This document shows positions 13,904 through 20,066 of a stretch of DNA of 20,109 bases, piece by piece. Below the pieces are notes generated by a model. That model searched no databases. It saw only the letters and a program-made list of their open reading frames with translations, and was not told the origin of the DNA. How positions within the stretch are numbered: position 1 is the stretch's first letter; each line of letters starts with the position of its first letter. Both the position numbers and the translations under genes were made by a program. The stretch comes from a virus, in the IMG/VR virus record IMGVR_UViG_3300044638_001100, positions 1 through 20,109 of that record; one strand, 5' to 3'.

Positions 13904-14092
13904 TTAACCTCCACGACCAGAACGACGACCGGGGCTCATTTGGTTGGCAACTTTAGCCAAGCCACGGCCCATCTTCAGCATGTCGCTGTTAGTCTTGCCA
14001 CCAGCACGCATTTTTTTAGCGTCGGGATGCATGCGTTTTTCGTGAGATTTCACTTCTTTGCTGGCAATGCGTTTAACTGATTTTGTGTCCAT
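13904..14092 (-). CDS. Very basic small protein
   Basis: This 62-residue protein starts MDTKSVKRIASKEVKSHEKR and has MHPDAKKMRAGGKTNSDML in the middle and SPGRRSGRGG at the end. It is strongly basic, partly helical and flexible at the C terminus, with no membrane segment. AAGGAG before the ATG supports the start. Such composition would suit binding to DNA or to the acidic inner surface of a capsid, but nothing in the sequence proves either. It lies nine bases after the zinc-ribbon gene and directly before another small basic gene. Confidence 0.72.
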   Translation of the reverse strand: MDTKSVKRIASKEVKSHEKRMHPDAKKMRAGGKTNSDMLKMGRGLAKVANQMSPGRRSGRGG

Positions 14093-14101
14093 ATCGACTC
14101 C

Positions 14102-14530
14102 TTATGTCGTTGTAACCGTTACTGTACCAAGTTCTACCGCTAATACCAAGTTGTTTGGCGTTAGGGCAGCATCAAAAAACGAAGACCCACCAACAGGATT
14201 CCATCCCCACTGGAAGATCCGACTGCCGCCCTCGTTGGTTCCTGAACCTGTTGGCCCAGTCCCACCGTTCACGTTAATCTGCAACCCGCTGTTGCCCGAT
14301 AGAAGATAGCTTCGATCTGGGCGAGGGTTACGCAAGCCTTGAGGGTCGTCCACCGGGAACATACCCAACTGCAACTGAGGCTGGTCAGGGTCCCAACACT
14401 CTGGGCATACAAGCAAGTCGTAGTTCTTGGTCTTGATGATTTCCTTGCGCAAAACCTTGAGCTTGAACCGCTGGTCGCAACGGTCGCACTGGGCGATTGC
14501 CCATTTGCCGCTGGCGAACCGATTACCCAT
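14102..14530 (-). CDS. Zinc-ribbon protein of the virion operon
   Basis: This 142-residue protein has two Cys pairs, C15-x-x-C18 and C42-x-x-C45, spaced like a zinc ribbon. The surrounding sequence is basic (RFKLKVLRKEIIKTKNYDLL). A conserved-looking stretch follows (CPECWDPDQPQLQLGMFPVD, LRNPRPDRSYL). The second half is Gly/Ser/Thr/Asn-rich and ends in repeated Val-Thr, probably a beta extension. I recall the first half from phages as a conserved protein of unknown role. The ATG shares one base with the adaptor stop (TAATG) and follows GGAGGT. Its tight coupling to the gp4-like adaptor suggests a connector or assembly function rather than transcription control, but DNA binding cannot be excluded. 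Confidence 0.78.
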   Translation of the reverse strand: MGNRFASGKWAIAQCDRCDQRFKLKVLRKEIIKTKNYDLLVCPECWDPDQPQLQLGMFPVDDPQGLRNPRPDRSYLLSGNSGLQINVNGGTGPTGSGTNEGGSRIFQWGWNPVGGSSFFDAALTPNNLVLAVELGTVTVTTT

Positions 14531-15459
14531 TATGTACCTCCAATATATTGCTGTCTGGGCACGAACCGGATCGCAGCTTTCTCGTGATCTTCATACGCTG
14601 CTAGTTCCCAAGCCTCGTCATACTGGGCCTTCAAAAACTGGAGGCGCTCAGCGCCTTGGGGAATCTTGCCAGCGATGTAGTACGACAGGCCAGCGGCCAT
14701 GCAGGGAATGAACCTGAACGGAACATCCATCACGTTCACACCGCCACCAGCGTCTTGGGTGCGGCGCAGTCGCCAGTACACAAATTGGTACGGCTGCGCA
14801 TTGTCAGGGGTTGGCCAAACGGTCACGGCTGGCAGGTTTTGAACGGAGACATTTGCCCCAGTCAGGTGGGTTGCTGCTGTGGTGCCATTCTGCCCACGGA
14901 AACAATTATTGAGCGTATTACCGTCGATATAACCATAATTGATGGTTTCTGAGCCTATCTGCACAAAGCCTAAAGCAGGCATACCAGCGGTAGAAGTCAC
15001 CGTGATTGTGGTCGCAGTGGCTGAAATGCCGCCATTCAACGTGGTAATCGGGGCCGCAGTCTGGCCATCCAGCCGCTGTATCCATACCTGAATTGGGCGG
15101 GCCTGCTGAAGTTTGTTAGGGAGAGTAGCGTAGGTAGAAACACTAATACGGGTGATGGTCAAGTCAGCCTGATTGGAGGTGTTGTTGGCTTGCGTGCGGA
15201 TGACGTGTTCAATCAAGTCCACGGTGTCGTTGGGCAGGGCATAGGTGCTTTGGCCCGGAACCAAGTCAATGACCCCTGTCTCAATCGTCCACATGTTGAT
15301 GCCACGGTTGGCCCACTCAGCGAACATGATGTTGAGACTACGGCGTGCAGTACGCAGGTCATAGCCCGTGCGCAGCTCGCCCCCAGCGCGTTCAAACGCC
15401 TCCTCGACGAGTTCAGTCAGGTCGAGGTTAAATGATGCGGAGCCGGAGGTTGTTGCCAT
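14530..15459 (-). CDS. Head-tail adaptor, P22 gp4-like, with an inserted beta domain
   Basis: This 309-residue protein has a helical N terminus (residues 11-50) with LTELVEEAFERAG, LRTGYDLRTARRSLNIMFAE and WANRGINMWTIETG. This matches the helix pattern of P22 gp4-type adaptors (A-x-x-x-L-N-x-M-x-x-E-W-x-x-x-G-I). A beta segment with PGQSTYALPNDTVDLIEHVI follows. Residues about 131-207 look inserted: TTITVTSTAGMPALGFVQIG and CFRGQNGTTAATHLTGANV form a beta module I know from unrelated phage proteins. The core then resumes with VWPTPDNAQPYQFVYWRLRR and ends in helices. It should form a ring under the portal. The ATG shares one base with the preceding stop (TAATG). Confidence 0.75.
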   Translation of the reverse strand: MATTSGSASFNLDLTELVEEAFERAGGELRTGYDLRTARRSLNIMFAEWANRGINMWTIETGVIDLVPGQSTYALPNDTVDLIEHVIRTQANNTSNQADLTITRISVSTYATLPNKLQQARPIQVWIQRLDGQTAAPITTLNGGISATATTITVTSTAGMPALGFVQIGSETINYGYIDGNTLNNCFRGQNGTTAATHLTGANVSVQNLPAVTVWPTPDNAQPYQFVYWRLRRTQDAGGGVNVMDVPFRFIPCMAAGLSYYIAGKIPQGAERLQFLKAQYDEAWELAAYEDHEKAAIRFVPRQQYIGGT

Positions 15460-15692: not shown

Positions 15693-15964
15693 TCTCTGTA
15701 ACCCCCACCTGCTGCCTTGTACTTCTTGGCTACAAGCTGCGCCTTACGTGCTGACCACTGGCCAGCTCCAGTACCGTGAGTCGCCGCCGCTTTAACCTGA
15801 GACACAATCCGCTTACGCAGACTAGGCTTGGTGTAATTACCGGCGGCGTTGACCTTCCCACCGTCCGCATACTCGGTGAAGTCAGTGTCGTCCCGACGTG
15901 CCTTACGTTTGGCCCCGGGCATCTTGGAGGGGCGTATAGCCCCCATGCCACGAGAGGCCATCAT
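15689..15964 (-). CDS. Small basic conserved phage protein (GQWSARKAQL family)
   Basis: This 91-residue protein has MMASRGMGAIRPSKMPGAKR, then ADGGKVNAAGNYTKPSLRKR, and ends THGTGAGQWSARKAQLVAKK with YKAAGGGY. I recognise the NYTKP-LRKR, GTGAGQWSARKAQL-AK-YK-AGGGY pattern as a recurrent small phage protein of unknown role. The C-terminal half looks helical and basic, as in a nucleic-acid-binding element. Two ATG codons in a row are possible starts (15964 or 15961); both overlap the previous stop. There is no clear ribosome-binding site, so translation is probably coupled. Confidence 0.78.
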   Translation of the reverse strand: MMASRGMGAIRPSKMPGAKRKARRDDTDFTEYADGGKVNAAGNYTKPSLRKRIVSQVKAAATHGTGAGQWSARKAQLVAKKYKAAGGGYRD

Positions 15965-16203
15965 TTGATGATCGTCCCACGAGTTTTACCGCGCTGAGCA
16001 CAGCCATCTGCACGGCTGGAAGCTGAACCACCTGCGGCAAACTTCTTGCCCATGTCCTTTTTGGTGGTGGGCGCTTCAGCAGCTTTGGCAGCAGCTTTCT
16101 TATCCGCAATTTCTTGTAGAACTTCCGCAGGAGCAGGCGCATCAGTACCGCCAGTCTTGGCTTCTTTGCGGTACTTTTCTGCCTTTTTATCGTCTTCAGT
16201 CAT
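15961..16203 (-). CDS. Small charged protein with the RADG-RGKT tail
   Basis: This 80-residue protein starts MTEDDKKAEKYRKEAKTGGT, has an Ala/Lys-rich helical middle (EVLQEIADKKAAAKAAEAP) and ends SSRADGCAQRGKTRGTIIK. The last 18 residues (63-80) match the ends of the two preceding proteins, with the core R-A-D-G-x-A-x-R-G-K-T. AAGGTGAACC before the ATG is a good ribosome-binding site, eight bases after the previous stop. Function is unknown. The helical middle with a flexible basic tail would suit a minor virion or scaffold-like protein. Confidence 0.75.
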   Translation of the reverse strand: MTEDDKKAEKYRKEAKTGGTDAPAPAEVLQEIADKKAAAKAAEAPTTKKDMGKKFAAGGSASSRADGCAQRGKTRGTIIK

Positions 16204-16211
16204 GGTTCACC

Positions 16212-16778
16212 TTAATACATCTTGCATTTGGTTTTGCCGCGAGAAGCGATGCCGTCAGCTCGTTTGGAAGCGGATGATGTCATACCGCCAGACTTATACG
16301 AGCTTTGTTTAGCTGCACGGCGACGTGCATCGGCGGCTGCGGCGGCTCGGGACGATACCCTAAGTGCGTCAGTTTTTTGGGCGCTTAGTTCTTCCGGCAC
16401 TTCTTGGGCAAACTTTTTTGTCTTTGCTTCACGTTTGACTGCGCGTGAAAGATTGGTAAGTTGATCAGTACGATTTGCGCTAGACACAGGAGTCGTAAGC
16501 CCAGCAGGTTTATCTGCGGCAGGGGCGGGTTTAACAACGAGGTCATTTGTTGCATCGCCTACACCCGGACGCGTTGTTCCGGTACCACCGGGCGTATAGG
16601 AGCTTTCGTTTGTAGGTGTAAAAGCATCTTCCAATGCTTCTACTTTTTTAGTGTCGCCGGTGTAAGAACTGGTCTTTTGGTCGCCCGCGTCATCTTTGTC
16701 CTTACCTTTGGACGCCATGTACGCCGCGCCCGCAAGAGCAGCAAGACCCGCTAATCTACCCAAATTTTTCTTTGCCAT
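16212..16778 (-). CDS. Basic protein with N-terminal hydrophobic segment and the RADG-RGKT tail
   Basis: This 188-residue protein begins MAKKNLGRLAGLAALAGAAY, a basic start followed by a short Ala/Gly/Leu hydrophobic stretch that might be a weak membrane segment. The middle is Lys/Asp/Thr/Pro-rich and probably disordered (SKGKDKDDAGDQKTSSYTG). A helical Ala/Arg-rich part follows (SSRAAAAADARRRAAKQSS). The end (GGMTSSASKRADGIASRGKT plus KCKMY) matches the tails of the neighbours on both sides. AAAGGGGCAATC before the ATG is a strong ribosome-binding site. I recognise no named family. The small hydrophobic Ala/Gly start and basic body resemble some ejection or internal head proteins, but this is only analogy. 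Confidence 0.72.
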   Translation of the reverse strand: MAKKNLGRLAGLAALAGAAYMASKGKDKDDAGDQKTSSYTGDTKKVEALEDAFTPTNESSYTPGGTGTTRPGVGDATNDLVVKPAPAADKPAGLTTPVSSANRTDQLTNLSRAVKREAKTKKFAQEVPEELSAQKTDALRVSSRAAAAADARRRAAKQSSYKSGGMTSSASKRADGIASRGKTKCKMY

Positions 16779-16788
16779 GATTGCCCCT

Positions 16789-17259
16789 TTAGCAGGCTTT
16801 GCCGCCCATGTTCATCTTGACCATTTTGCCTTTGGTTTTGCCTTTGACAGCTAAACCATCGCGGCTGGGGGCTGCGGTTTTAACAGCGCCCATCTTGCTG
16901 GCAGTCATGCCGCCTTTGGCCATTTTCTTCATGCCTGCTTCTTTCATTTCGTGCTTAATCATTGATGCAGGTGCGCCCTTCTTTTTCATGAAGGACACTT
17001 CTTTTTTCATCATTCCTTTGGATTCTTTCATTTCGCCACCCTTTTTAAAAAGTTCGTTCTTACCCTGATTGGTCTTTGGTTTGTTAACCGCTTGCGCATC
17101 AGCGCGGCTCTTAGAGCCTTTGCCAAATTTCATACCCTTGCTGGCTTCGCTGAAGTCCTTGCCAACGGCTTTAGGCACTCCAACTTTCTTCGCAAACGCT
17201 GGGTTGTGCGCCACAGCATCCATGAATTTCTTTTGCTTATCACTTACTGCTGGCATCAT
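16789..17259 (-). CDS. Lys/Met-rich basic protein with the RDG-KGKT tail
   Basis: This 156-residue protein opens MMPAVSDKQKKFMDAVAHNP, followed by AFAKKVGVPKAVGKDFSEAS; I recall this SDKQKKFM-AVAHNP-FAKKVG pattern from many aquatic phages. The rest is extremely Lys/Met/Gly-rich (KKEVSFMKKKGAPASMIKHE, KEAGMKKMAKGGMTASKMGA). The end carries PSRDGLAVKGKTKGKMV (from residue 131), related to the tails of the next two proteins. Residues 51-67 (SRADAQAVNKPKTNQGK) look like a degenerate internal copy. Starts at 17259 or 17256 both overlap the previous stop, with GGGG upstream. Function is unknown; its charge suggests binding to nucleic acid or an acidic protein surface. Confidence 0.78.
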   Translation of the reverse strand: MMPAVSDKQKKFMDAVAHNPAFAKKVGVPKAVGKDFSEASKGMKFGKGSKSRADAQAVNKPKTNQGKNELFKKGGEMKESKGMMKKEVSFMKKKGAPASMIKHEMKEAGMKKMAKGGMTASKMGAVKTAAPSRDGLAVKGKTKGKMVKMNMGGKAC

Positions 17260-17496: not shown

Positions 17497-17751
17497 TCAG
17501 CACTTCCATCTAGCCAAGGAAGCCGCCTTACGGGTGGGCTTGCCTTTTTCATCTTTCATCGGGCCGGGCATACCTGACATGCGAGCGCAAAATGACTTCT
17601 TGCGGGGGCCACCTTGGGGCTGTGGAGCCTTCAGGTTACTGCCCGTTGCTGCGTTGTACTTGGCGCGGCCTTTGGCAGTCAAACCCGCCCCCTTGGAGAC
17701 AGGCAGCTTTTCGCCACGTCCAACTGCAAGGGAGGGATTCTTCTTAGCCAT
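17497..17751 (-). CDS. Small basic conserved phage protein (KKSFCARMSG family)
   Basis: This 84-residue protein starts MAKKNPSLAVGRGEKLPVSK and has KGAGLTAKGRAKYNAATGSN, then GGPRKKSFCARMSGMPGPMK, DEKGKPTRKAASLARWKC. I recognise the LTAKGR-KYN--TGSNLK-P and KKSFCARMSG patterns from a widespread small phage protein of unknown function. Two Cys remain in an otherwise Lys/Gly/Pro-rich chain. The ATG at 17751 overlaps the preceding stop by eight bases; an in-frame ATG seven codons earlier is less likely, because family members I recall begin near KKNPSL. It opens the run of very basic proteins. Confidence 0.78.
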   Translation of the reverse strand: MAKKNPSLAVGRGEKLPVSKGAGLTAKGRAKYNAATGSNLKAPQPQGGPRKKSFCARMSGMPGPMKDEKGKPTRKAASLARWKC

Positions 17752-18259
17752 AGTAAATCTGCGCCCCGTCAATAGAACTCATGTAGGCATAAATTCCATT
17801 TACTGCCAATACGCCTTCGCCGGGGATAAGCGGGGCGTTTTGGAACTCGTCTGATGCGTGAGTTTCATAGGTTAACAACCAACGATTTGCGCCGCTGACA
17901 TAAAGCGCTGCTGGAGAACCTGTAATAGTCCCAGTATTGATGTCTGTGATCGTAAACGCATCTGCGGTTGTTACAGTGATAGCGTAATTCCCATCAGTGG
18001 CAGTGCCGCCTGAGCCAGTAACAAAGTGAATGCCGACAACAGTGCCGGTTGTTAACCCGTGCGCGGTTTTTGCAATCGTCACAGTCGCGCCACTACGTCC
18101 GTAAGTAACGCTTGAAGTTACTGGGGCTACGGTTGTATCAAACAATACCAAAGTCCCGCCACCGCCATAAAAAGAAACACCTTTTACCCTGTTTCGTCCA
18201 AGCACAAAAAAACCACTTTGGTTTAGGTGCCCTTGTCTTACATCAGTTTGCATCGTCAT
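17744..18259 (-). CDS. Beta-rich protein of the virion operon (unknown function)
   Basis: This 171-residue protein starts MTMQTDVRQGHLNQSGFFVL, followed by GRNRVKGVSFYGGGGTLVLF. The middle (TVTIAKTAHGLTTGTVVGIH, TDGNYAITVTTADAFTITDI) is a beta module with the H-G-L-T-T-G-x-x-V and D-G-x-Y-x-I-T-V elements that I know from phage and bacterial proteins as a small beta domain. The end is GEGVLAVNGIYAYMSSIDGA. GGAGCAGCAAA before the ATG is a good ribosome-binding site. The start lies 17 bases inside the preceding small gene. A capsid or tail decoration role is plausible from fold type and position, not demonstrated. Confidence 0.7.
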   Translation of the reverse strand: MTMQTDVRQGHLNQSGFFVLGRNRVKGVSFYGGGGTLVLFDTTVAPVTSSVTYGRSGATVTIAKTAHGLTTGTVVGIHFVTGSGGTATDGNYAITVTTADAFTITDINTGTITGSPAALYVSGANRWLLTYETHASDEFQNAPLIPGEGVLAVNGIYAYMSSIDGAQIYYG

Positions 18260-19154: not shown

Positions 19155-20066
19155 TCAGGCGGAACCTGAAGAACCCCACATACCCAATGGGTCAGACCAG
19201 CCGAAGCTGTAACGCTCACGGGCCTTGTAACGCACGTTACCGGTATCAAAGTCGCCGTCCATGCTGTTTTGCAGCGGGGTGCGGACGAAATGCTTCATAC
19301 CGTTAGGCACGTCAGTGGTCAGATACCAACCGTTGGTGTCAGTCAAGAAGTGATTGACGGTGTAGCCCTCGGGGATTGCGCCCATCTGTTTGATAGCGTT
19401 GATGTCGTTATCAGCAGTGGAGACACGCAGTTCAGTGTCAAGCAAACGCTTAGCAACGAACATGAGTGCTGGAGGCACAATCATTTTCTTGGGCTTAGCG
19501 GCAATCAACAGGCCACGCTCATCAGTCCAAGCGGCGATTTGAATAACGGCTGCTTCCAAAGAAGTCTCGTTCAAATCAACTTGGGTGGTGGGAGTGTTGC
19601 TGTTGGTGCCACCAGAGATCAAGGGGTGGCTTGCGTTGAACAAGGACACGCCGTCGCCACCGGGGTAGCTGGAGCTGAAGCCATTGTTCAGGACGGCAGC
19701 AGCCTTGACCTGTTTGGTGTAAGCCATAGCGCGAGCCAAAGACTTGGTGTAGCGGGCAGACAACGAGTCATACAAGTTATCTTCCACTGCTTCTTCAGTG
19801 ATGGAGAAGCCCAAGGCGATGGTTTCGTGGGTATAGCGGGTTGACCATGCTTCTTGTGCATTGTCGTAAGCGATGGCAGAGCCTTCGTTCTTGACAGGTG
19901 CGGCAGAGAAGCCGGACAGCTTGGTTTCTTCTTCAAACGAACGCTCAGAGGTCTCTGTTTCGTAGATCTCTTTGTGTTCTTCGCCGTAACGAGCGTACTC
20001 CATACCGAACAAAGCGTTCAGACCGGGGAGCAACTCTTTCAGCAGTTGTGCGCGTGAAATAGCCAT
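19155..20066 (-). CDS. Major capsid protein (HK97-fold, Mu gpT-like)
   Basis: This 303-residue protein begins MAISRAQLLKELLPGLNALF. It contains a stretch typical of phage head proteins: RSFEEETKLSGFSAAPVKNE, ETIALGFSITEEAVEDNLYD, SLSARYTKSLARAMAYTKQV. Then come LFNASHPLISGG, AKPKKMIVPPALMFVAKRLL and a final FDTGNVRYKARERYSFGWSD. I know this order (ERS-EE-----GF-AAPVK-EG, TEEAVEDNLYD, F---HPL, P-LMF-A-R-L) from capsid proteins annotated as Mu gpT-like or HK97-fold. It lacks an evident N-terminal scaffold domain, so a separate scaffold gene probably lies upstream outside the window. AAGGAGCTAAATC before the ATG is a strong ribosome-binding site, and a terminator follows the stop, both fitting very high expression. 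Confidence 0.9.
   Translation of the reverse strand: MAISRAQLLKELLPGLNALFGMEYARYGEEHKEIYETETSERSFEEETKLSGFSAAPVKNEGSAIAYDNAQEAWSTRYTHETIALGFSITEEAVEDNLYDSLSARYTKSLARAMAYTKQVKAAAVLNNGFSSSYPGGDGVSLFNASHPLISGGTNSNTPTTQVDLNETSLEAAVIQIAAWTDERGLLIAAKPKKMIVPPALMFVAKRLLDTELRVSTADNDINAIKQMGAIPEGYTVNHFLTDTNGWYLTTDVPNGMKHFVRTPLQNSMDGDFDTGNVRYKARERYSFGWSDPLGMWGSSGSA

What the first reader, a model, noticed from the sequence alone, without database searches (positions are those of the whole stretch)
15964..16869. Three consecutive genes share a C-terminal tail with core (R)-A/R-D-G-x-A-x-(K/R)-G-K-T
The ends of the 156-, 188- and 80-residue proteins read PSRDGLAVKGKTKGK, KRADGIASRGKTKCK and SRADGCAQRGKTRGT, while the bodies differ completely. 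A degenerate copy (SRADAQAVNKPKT) sits inside the first. A short tail kept on unrelated bodies in neighbouring genes looks like a sorting, packaging or docking tag, for example for entry into the capsid. I recall similar tails in other aquatic phages but know of no described function.
Basis: partly seen in the sequence, partly recalled or inferred. Interest (0 to 1): 0.68.

Follow-up and report, generated by a model that had tools for sequence, protein, structure and literature searches.

The report
Shared C-terminal tag on phage proteins
A large, mostly uncultured family of freshwater phages puts the same roughly 20-residue tag on the ends of one to five otherwise unrelated small proteins made next to the capsid gene, which looks like an address label that most likely brings these proteins into the virus particle, although this has not been tested.

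Summary
The 188- and 80-residue proteins end in S-x-RADG-(I/C)-A-x-RGKT-(K/R)-x-x-x-x; the 156-residue protein carries a relaxed copy 14 residues before its end. Its supposed internal degenerate copy is something else. A position-blind scan of IMG/VR plus relatives gave 301 distinct segments with the motif, all within 19 residues of the stop codon, with free synonymous variation, on about 95-139 groups of bodies with no BLAST similarity. The tag is confined to one phage lineage (118 of 120 loci; MCP 74-94% identical to the window's). It sits in one place: 214 of 223 tags lie between the major capsid gene and the adaptor gene, all on the same strand. It is a true add-on: 105 DUF6321 proteins end at W-x-C, and 23 continue straight into the tag. 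No Pfam, PHROG or NCBIfam model covers it and no searched paper prints it. Best reading: a protein-level recognition tag, most likely for loading variable accessory proteins into the virion, analogous to the T4 capsid targeting sequence or encapsulin targeting peptides. Virion entry itself is inferred; a nucleic-acid-binding tail or another assembly dock is not excluded.

The parts
15964..16020 (-). C-terminal tag of protein C: SSRADGCAQRGKTRGTIIK
   Evidence: orthologues keep it
15961..16203 (-). gene C, 80 aa, predicted disordered, tagged
16215..16268 (-). C-terminal tag of protein B: SKRADGIASRGKTKCKMY
16212..16778 (-). gene B, 188 aa: conserved start MAKKNLGRLAGLAALAGAAYMAS, hypervariable middle, tag
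16819..16866 (-). relaxed tag copy in protein A: SRDGLAVKGKTKGKMV, 14 residues follow the GKT core
16789..17259 (-). gene A, 156 aa; residues 2-51 match phrog_16759 and the N-termini of two PHROGs named virion structural protein
17071..17109 (-).
17497..17772 (-). DUF6321 protein, untagged here (ends WKC); orthologues in the same slot elsewhere carry the tag after W-N-C
13904..14092 (-). 62-aa gene whose relatives carry an N-terminal form of the motif (MGFKSAADGITKKGKTKGRN...); absent from the window's version
19155..20066 (-). major capsid protein, upstream landmark of the tagged cluster
14530..15459 (-). 309-aa protein matching the annotated (Pam1-type) adaptor of DSL-LC04, downstream landmark

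Best explanation
The tail is a short, flexible C-terminal recognition tag (hinge K-G-G-x-V, then S-A-S-x-R-A-D-G-[CI]-A-x-[RK]-G-K-T-[RK]-G-x-[MIF]-[VICY]) shared by a variable set of late accessory proteins of one family of short-tailed freshwater phages. Shown: it is conserved at protein level, it is C-terminal, it is appended to and missing from otherwise orthologous proteins, and its genes lie only in the head-to-connector gene block. Inferred: one conserved partner made at the same time (major capsid protein, scaffold or portal) binds it, so any protein carrying it is loaded into the procapsid before DNA packaging and delivered with the genome. Bodies can then turn over freely while the address stays fixed.
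For: 301 distinct segments found by a position-blind pattern, all within 2-19 residues of the stop, codons freely synonymous. Control of 257 Gb of cellular genomes: 32 matches, at scattered positions except in L231, L249 and L250: L231 and L249 are pieces of this phage lineage, L250 looks like a chimeric contig end. 95-139 body groups; 92 representatives align only over the tag. Clean add-on: 105 DUF6321 proteins end at W-x-C, 23 run on into the tag; a body found with the tag in L120 is fused to body C in L278. Location: 214 of 223 tags between MCP and adaptor, 9 just downstream, 223 of 223 on the MCP strand; nowhere else in contigs of up to 66 kb apart from isolated loose-pattern matches. The only two body types with outside relatives, gene A's N-terminus and DUF6321, resemble proteins named virion structural protein or structural protein. 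Tags in one genome are no more alike than tags across genomes (0.665 vs 0.677), as expected if the partner is conserved through the lineage. Protein C with its tag is predicted disordered. T4 precedent: a 10-residue terminal sequence suffices for capsid entry and is shared by divergent small basic internal proteins (PMC9026906).
Against: No virion proteomics, binding data or complex model links the tag to the particle. Gene location alone cannot separate packaged proteins from assembly factors. The tag is basic and could simply bind DNA or RNA. Some copies are followed by 6-46 residues, one gene family carries a related motif near its N-terminus, and close tagless relatives exist (HTVC023P, CRP-902), so the tag is dispensable to the wider group. 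No prohead protease or dedicated receptor gene was identified.
Confidence: 0.5

Rival explanations
1. The tail is a nucleic-acid-binding or condensing module: small basic proteins that coat phage DNA or RNA, with the RADG...RGKT tail gripping the phosphate backbone. Packaging, if any, would follow from DNA binding and not from a capsid signal.
For: The tag carries four to six basic residues and one acidic one; bodies have a median net charge of about +4 per 100 aa; neighbouring untagged proteins of 91, 77, 62 and 86 aa are also small and basic.
Against: The conserved positions include many uncharged ones (S-A-S, A, G, C/I, A, G, T), and the lineage-wide sequence is much tighter than charge alone would need. 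One late locus only.
Confidence: 0.2
2. The tag docks proteins on another assembly partner and the proteins are not delivered cargo: head-completion or neck factors, external capsid attachments, or non-virion chaperones of late assembly.
For: The slot lies between the capsid/cement genes and the adaptor gene; some bodies are long and low in complexity, like surface extensions; the C-terminal end need not be free.
Against: Large turnover of bodies and varying number per locus (1-5) is unusual for structural neck parts.
Confidence: 0.18
3. Ordinary paralogy: the genes descend from one duplicated gene whose disordered bodies diverged beyond recognition, leaving only a functional C-terminal motif.
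For: Tagged genes sit in tandem; orthologous B proteins keep start and tag while the middle is hypervariable; single-linkage BLAST joins many bodies weakly.
Against: DUF6321 and gene A bodies have independent families outside this lineage and exist with and without the tag; 92 representatives share nothing else; tags in one genome are not closer at DNA level than tags between genomes.
Confidence: 0.1
4. The conserved stretch is a nucleic-acid element (ribosome binding site of the next gene, recombination site) read by chance as a peptide.
For: Tagged genes are tightly packed and often overlap the next start.
Against: All synonymous codons are used at conserved positions; tag DNA identity is only about 59% both between and within loci.
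Confidence: 0.01

Closest known systems
[quoted passage not shown]
   Same: Short terminal peptide shared by small proteins with divergent bodies; set of bodies differs between related phages; proposed as a general way for T4-like phages to load varied proteins into heads (PMC9026906).
   Different: CTS is N-terminal, about 10 residues, cleaved by gp21 protease and demonstrated by fusions. Here the tag is C-terminal, unrelated in sequence, no protease or cleavage is known, and capsid entry is untested.
Encapsulin targeting (cargo-loading) peptides
   Same: Short C-terminal peptide on otherwise different proteins, on a disordered tail, placing cargo inside an HK97-fold shell (PMC10960027, PMC8346489).
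   Different: Cellular nanocompartments with few enzyme cargos; different sequences; here a replicating phage with several small disordered proteins per genome.
Pfam DUF6321 (PF19846)
   Same: Short module near the C-terminus of proteins of many lengths in aquatic phages; in this lineage one of the bodies that receives the tag.
   Different: It is a separate domain; the tag is neither part of it nor covered by its model.
HTVC023P-type pelagiphages, Planktothrix phage Pag-Yong1, DSL-LC04 ('Dishuiviridae' proposal), Roseobacter CRP-901/902
   Same: Same phage group: MCP 54-73% identical, same gene order around GroES, MCP and adaptor.
   Different: HTVC023P, DSL-LC04 and CRP-902 lack the tag; Pag-Yong1 has one variant copy, GGMIGRDGCAKRGRTKGRFI, on UMO75986.1.

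Membership tests
T4-type capsid targeting sequence | Shared short terminal peptide on divergent bodies | tested here: met
T4-type capsid targeting sequence | Peptide at the N-terminus | tested here: not met
   Tag is C-terminal in 301 of 301 segments; an N-terminal relative exists in one other gene family
T4-type capsid targeting sequence | Cleaved by a prohead protease | not testable with these tools
   No protease was recognised among TerL, portal, GroES and the three genes before MCP; processing needs mass spectrometry
T4-type capsid targeting sequence | Directs protein into the procapsid | not testable with these tools
   Only gene location and annotation of relatives support it
Encapsulin-type targeting peptide | Short C-terminal peptide on a flexible tail | tested here: met
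Encapsulin-type targeting peptide | Binds the inside of an HK97-fold shell | not testable with these tools
   MCP matches Phage_capsid_4 and Mu gpT families; no complex could be modelled
Any described domain (Pfam, PHROGs, NCBIfam) | A profile covers the tag | tested here: not met
   92 tagged representatives: few hits, to body domains or weak chance-like matches; the window's B and C match nothing
One paralogous gene family | Bodies alignable over their length | tested here: not met
   DUF6321 and A bodies have separate families

The most novel reading that the evidence does not exclude
A previously undescribed C-terminal capsid cargo-loading code in tailed phages: one conserved tag that a widespread uncultured freshwater phage family puts on a rotating set of host-acting or anti-defence proteins packaged and injected with the genome.
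Probability: 0.35. Interest if true: 0.85.

Novelty: new variant of a known kind. Interest (0 to 1): 0.62.

Why it matters
If it is a loading tag, one motif search would list candidate packaged and injected proteins of a large uncultured phage family, whose functions cannot be guessed from their disordered, fast-changing bodies. It would be a second, independent solution to the T4 internal-protein problem, this time C-terminal, and a ready handle for loading foreign proteins into phage heads. Even if the partner is something else, a peptide kept lineage-wide on about a hundred unrelated bodies is a sharp, testable binding motif that current domain libraries miss.

Tried and rejected
Internal degenerate copy in A: rejected. 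DNA-level element: rejected by codon freedom. Recent tandem duplication of the tag: not seen in general; tag DNA identity within loci equals that between loci, apart from a few pairs such as L058 and L192. Genome-specific tag-receptor pairs: no sign, within-genome tags are not more alike. Membrane or pore role for the tagged set: only 3 of 146 representatives have a strongly hydrophobic 19-residue stretch. A second multi-body tail in these phages: the next commonest, RGTGAATKG...RGPMA on the 86-aa gene, looks mostly like one gene family. tblastn of tag or tagged proteins against isolate phages: nothing usable beyond DUF6321 matches and a DSL-LC04 body match without the tag. PDB: no match for tag, MCP or 242-aa protein. 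Literature text search for the motif: only unrelated chance strings. Structure models: C disordered, A ordered only in about residues 1-40, so no fold search was made. One alignment call failed on a wrong frame and one script on a missing file.

Full report
WHAT IS THERE. The window is a 20.1-kb IMG/VR record coding mostly on the minus strand. Read along the coding strand it runs: major capsid protein (Phage_capsid_4 / Mu gpT), a 190-aa protein in the place where relatives have the annotated cement protein, 171 aa, DUF6321 protein, a 98-aa spanin-like protein, A (156 aa), B (188 aa), C (80 aa), two small basic proteins, a 309-aa protein matching annotated adaptor proteins, 142, 62, 86, 242, 141 and 191 aa, then fibres. 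A, B and C are the three genes of the finding. B and C end in the canonical tag; A has a relaxed copy 14 residues from its end. The degenerate DNA pattern for R-A-D-G-x-A-x-[RK]-G-K-T occurs twice in the window, 0.00 expected.

THE TAG IS REAL AND C-TERMINAL. Every one lies 2-19 residues from the stop codon, 217 of 301 at exactly 5. Columns the pattern did not fix are also conserved: S/T-A-S before the motif, C or I at +4, K/R at +11, G at +12, hydrophobic last residues, and a K-G-G-x-V hinge upstream. All synonymous codons are used, so selection is on the peptide. A control scan of 257 Gb of bacterial and archaeal genomes found 32 matches, scattered in position except in three MAG contigs; two of these (L231, L249) encode the same phage lineage and the third (L250) looks like a chimeric contig end. 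A profile search without the fixed pattern finds variants (RADGCC, GFT, GHT, ANG) that leave G3, G8 and T10 as the firmest positions.

THE BODIES ARE UNRELATED AND THE TAG IS AN ADD-ON. Bodies without the tail fall into 95 (E<=1e-3) to 139 (E<=1e-8) groups. An alignment of 92 representatives is conserved only as KGGxVxSASxRADGCAQRGKTRGxMx. Pfam, PHROGs and NCBIfam have no model for the tag; apart from a few weak matches they know only two body types, DUF6321 and phrog_16759, the N-terminal module of A. The cleanest evidence for modularity comes from DUF6321 proteins, recruited here by their own motif: 105 stop exactly at W-x-C, as in the window, and 23 continue W-N-C-[A/K]-x-G-G-... straight into the tag. 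A body tagged directly in L120 is found fused in front of body C in L278. B orthologues keep their start and tag while the middle is rewritten (about 51-63% DNA identity against about 82% around the tag). Paralogy with fast-diverging disordered bodies may account for some pairs but not for these cases.

WHERE IT OCCURS. Of the 120 loci found by the lineage-blind scan, 118 carry other genes of the window's phage group; the two exceptions are fragments of about 1 kb. Where MCP is present it is 74-94% identical to the window's. In 17 fetched stretches the gene order is constant: TerL, portal, GroES, coiled protein, two genes, MCP, cement region, DUF6321, tagged cluster, adaptor, fibres. Across all loci with both landmarks, 214 of 223 tags lie between MCP and adaptor, 9 just after the adaptor, and 223 of 223 on the MCP strand. 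Contigs of 44-66 kb have the tag in this cluster and nowhere else, apart from isolated loose-pattern matches and the contig discussed below. Loci hold 1-5 tagged genes, usually adjacent. Isolates with a related capsid (54-73% identical) mostly lack it: HTVC023P, DSL-LC04 and CRP-902 have none, Pag-Yong1 has one variant copy. In DSL-LC04 a homologue of one tagged body ends in a different basic tail, GGLVTSKGQGRVIRSKKTRIC. One 66-kb contig carries two versions of the A-to-142-aa segment about 75% identical, abruptly becoming 100% identical to the window downstream; this suggests swapping of the segment between co-occurring strains, though a chimeric assembly is not excluded.

WHAT IT PROBABLY DOES. 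Shown: a protein-level C-terminal recognition motif, modular, old (tag DNA identity within loci equals that between loci) and tied to the head gene block. Not shown: the partner. Tags in one genome are no more alike than tags across genomes (0.665 against 0.677; permutation mean 0.676, sd 0.008), so the partner's binding surface should be conserved through the lineage; the capsid protein fits this, and scaffold and portal are also candidates. Tagged proteins are mostly without membrane segments and mildly basic, and the one folded in full, C, is predicted disordered. The two bodies with outside relatives are both linked to virions by annotation: A's module begins PHROGs named virion structural protein, and DUF6321 ends a cyanophage protein annotated as a T4-like structural protein. 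The most economical mechanism is loading into the procapsid by a shared tail, as T4 does with its N-terminal CTS on divergent internal proteins (PMC9026906) and encapsulins do with C-terminal targeting peptides (PMC10960027). I put virion loading at about 0.5; nucleic-acid binding and other assembly docks take most of the rest.

MEMBERSHIP AND NOVELTY. It works like a CTS or cargo-loading peptide but is not filed as either: the CTS terminus is wrong, cleavage and capsid entry are untested, and there is no sequence relation. No domain library covers it and no paper in the searched library prints it. I rate it a new variant of a known kind, with an open route to something more if loading is confirmed.

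Noticed in passing
window 13904-14092 and L013:636-830, L046:2247-2441, L181:5735-5935: The 62-64-aa gene between the 142-aa and 86-aa genes has two N-terminal versions; in many relatives it starts with an N-terminal relative of the tag (MGFKSAADGITKKGKTKGRN).
   Followed up: partly
L264 and L265 (both ends of one 66,202-base IMG/VR contig): Two divergent versions (about 75% identical) of the A-to-142-aa segment occur in one contig, with a sharp switch to DNA 100% identical to the window downstream: allele exchange or a strain-chimeric assembly.
   Followed up: partly
window 17497-17772; phrog_3477, 10346, 28131, 727, 30733: DUF6321 (SFCARM...W-x-C) itself matches the C-terminal ends of PHROG families of 99 to 928 positions, so it may be another C-terminal module of aquatic phages.
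   Followed up: no
L257 and L282 (HTVC023P): Four ORFs of pelagiphage HTVC023P share a different tail, GGSG(I/V)V(I/V)IRYKFQ, after glycine-rich stretches; probably a fibre-end motif.
   Followed up: no
L258:5640-6245 (DSL-LC04): Two adjacent small proteins upstream of the capsid gene end in similar basic tails, AKKKTKIY and SKKTRIC; the second is homologous to a tagged body.
   Followed up: partly
L250:162-2003 (Patulibacter MAG contig): An acyltransferase-like ORF ends abruptly in the phage tag at the contig edge; looks like a chimeric assembly.
   Followed up: partly
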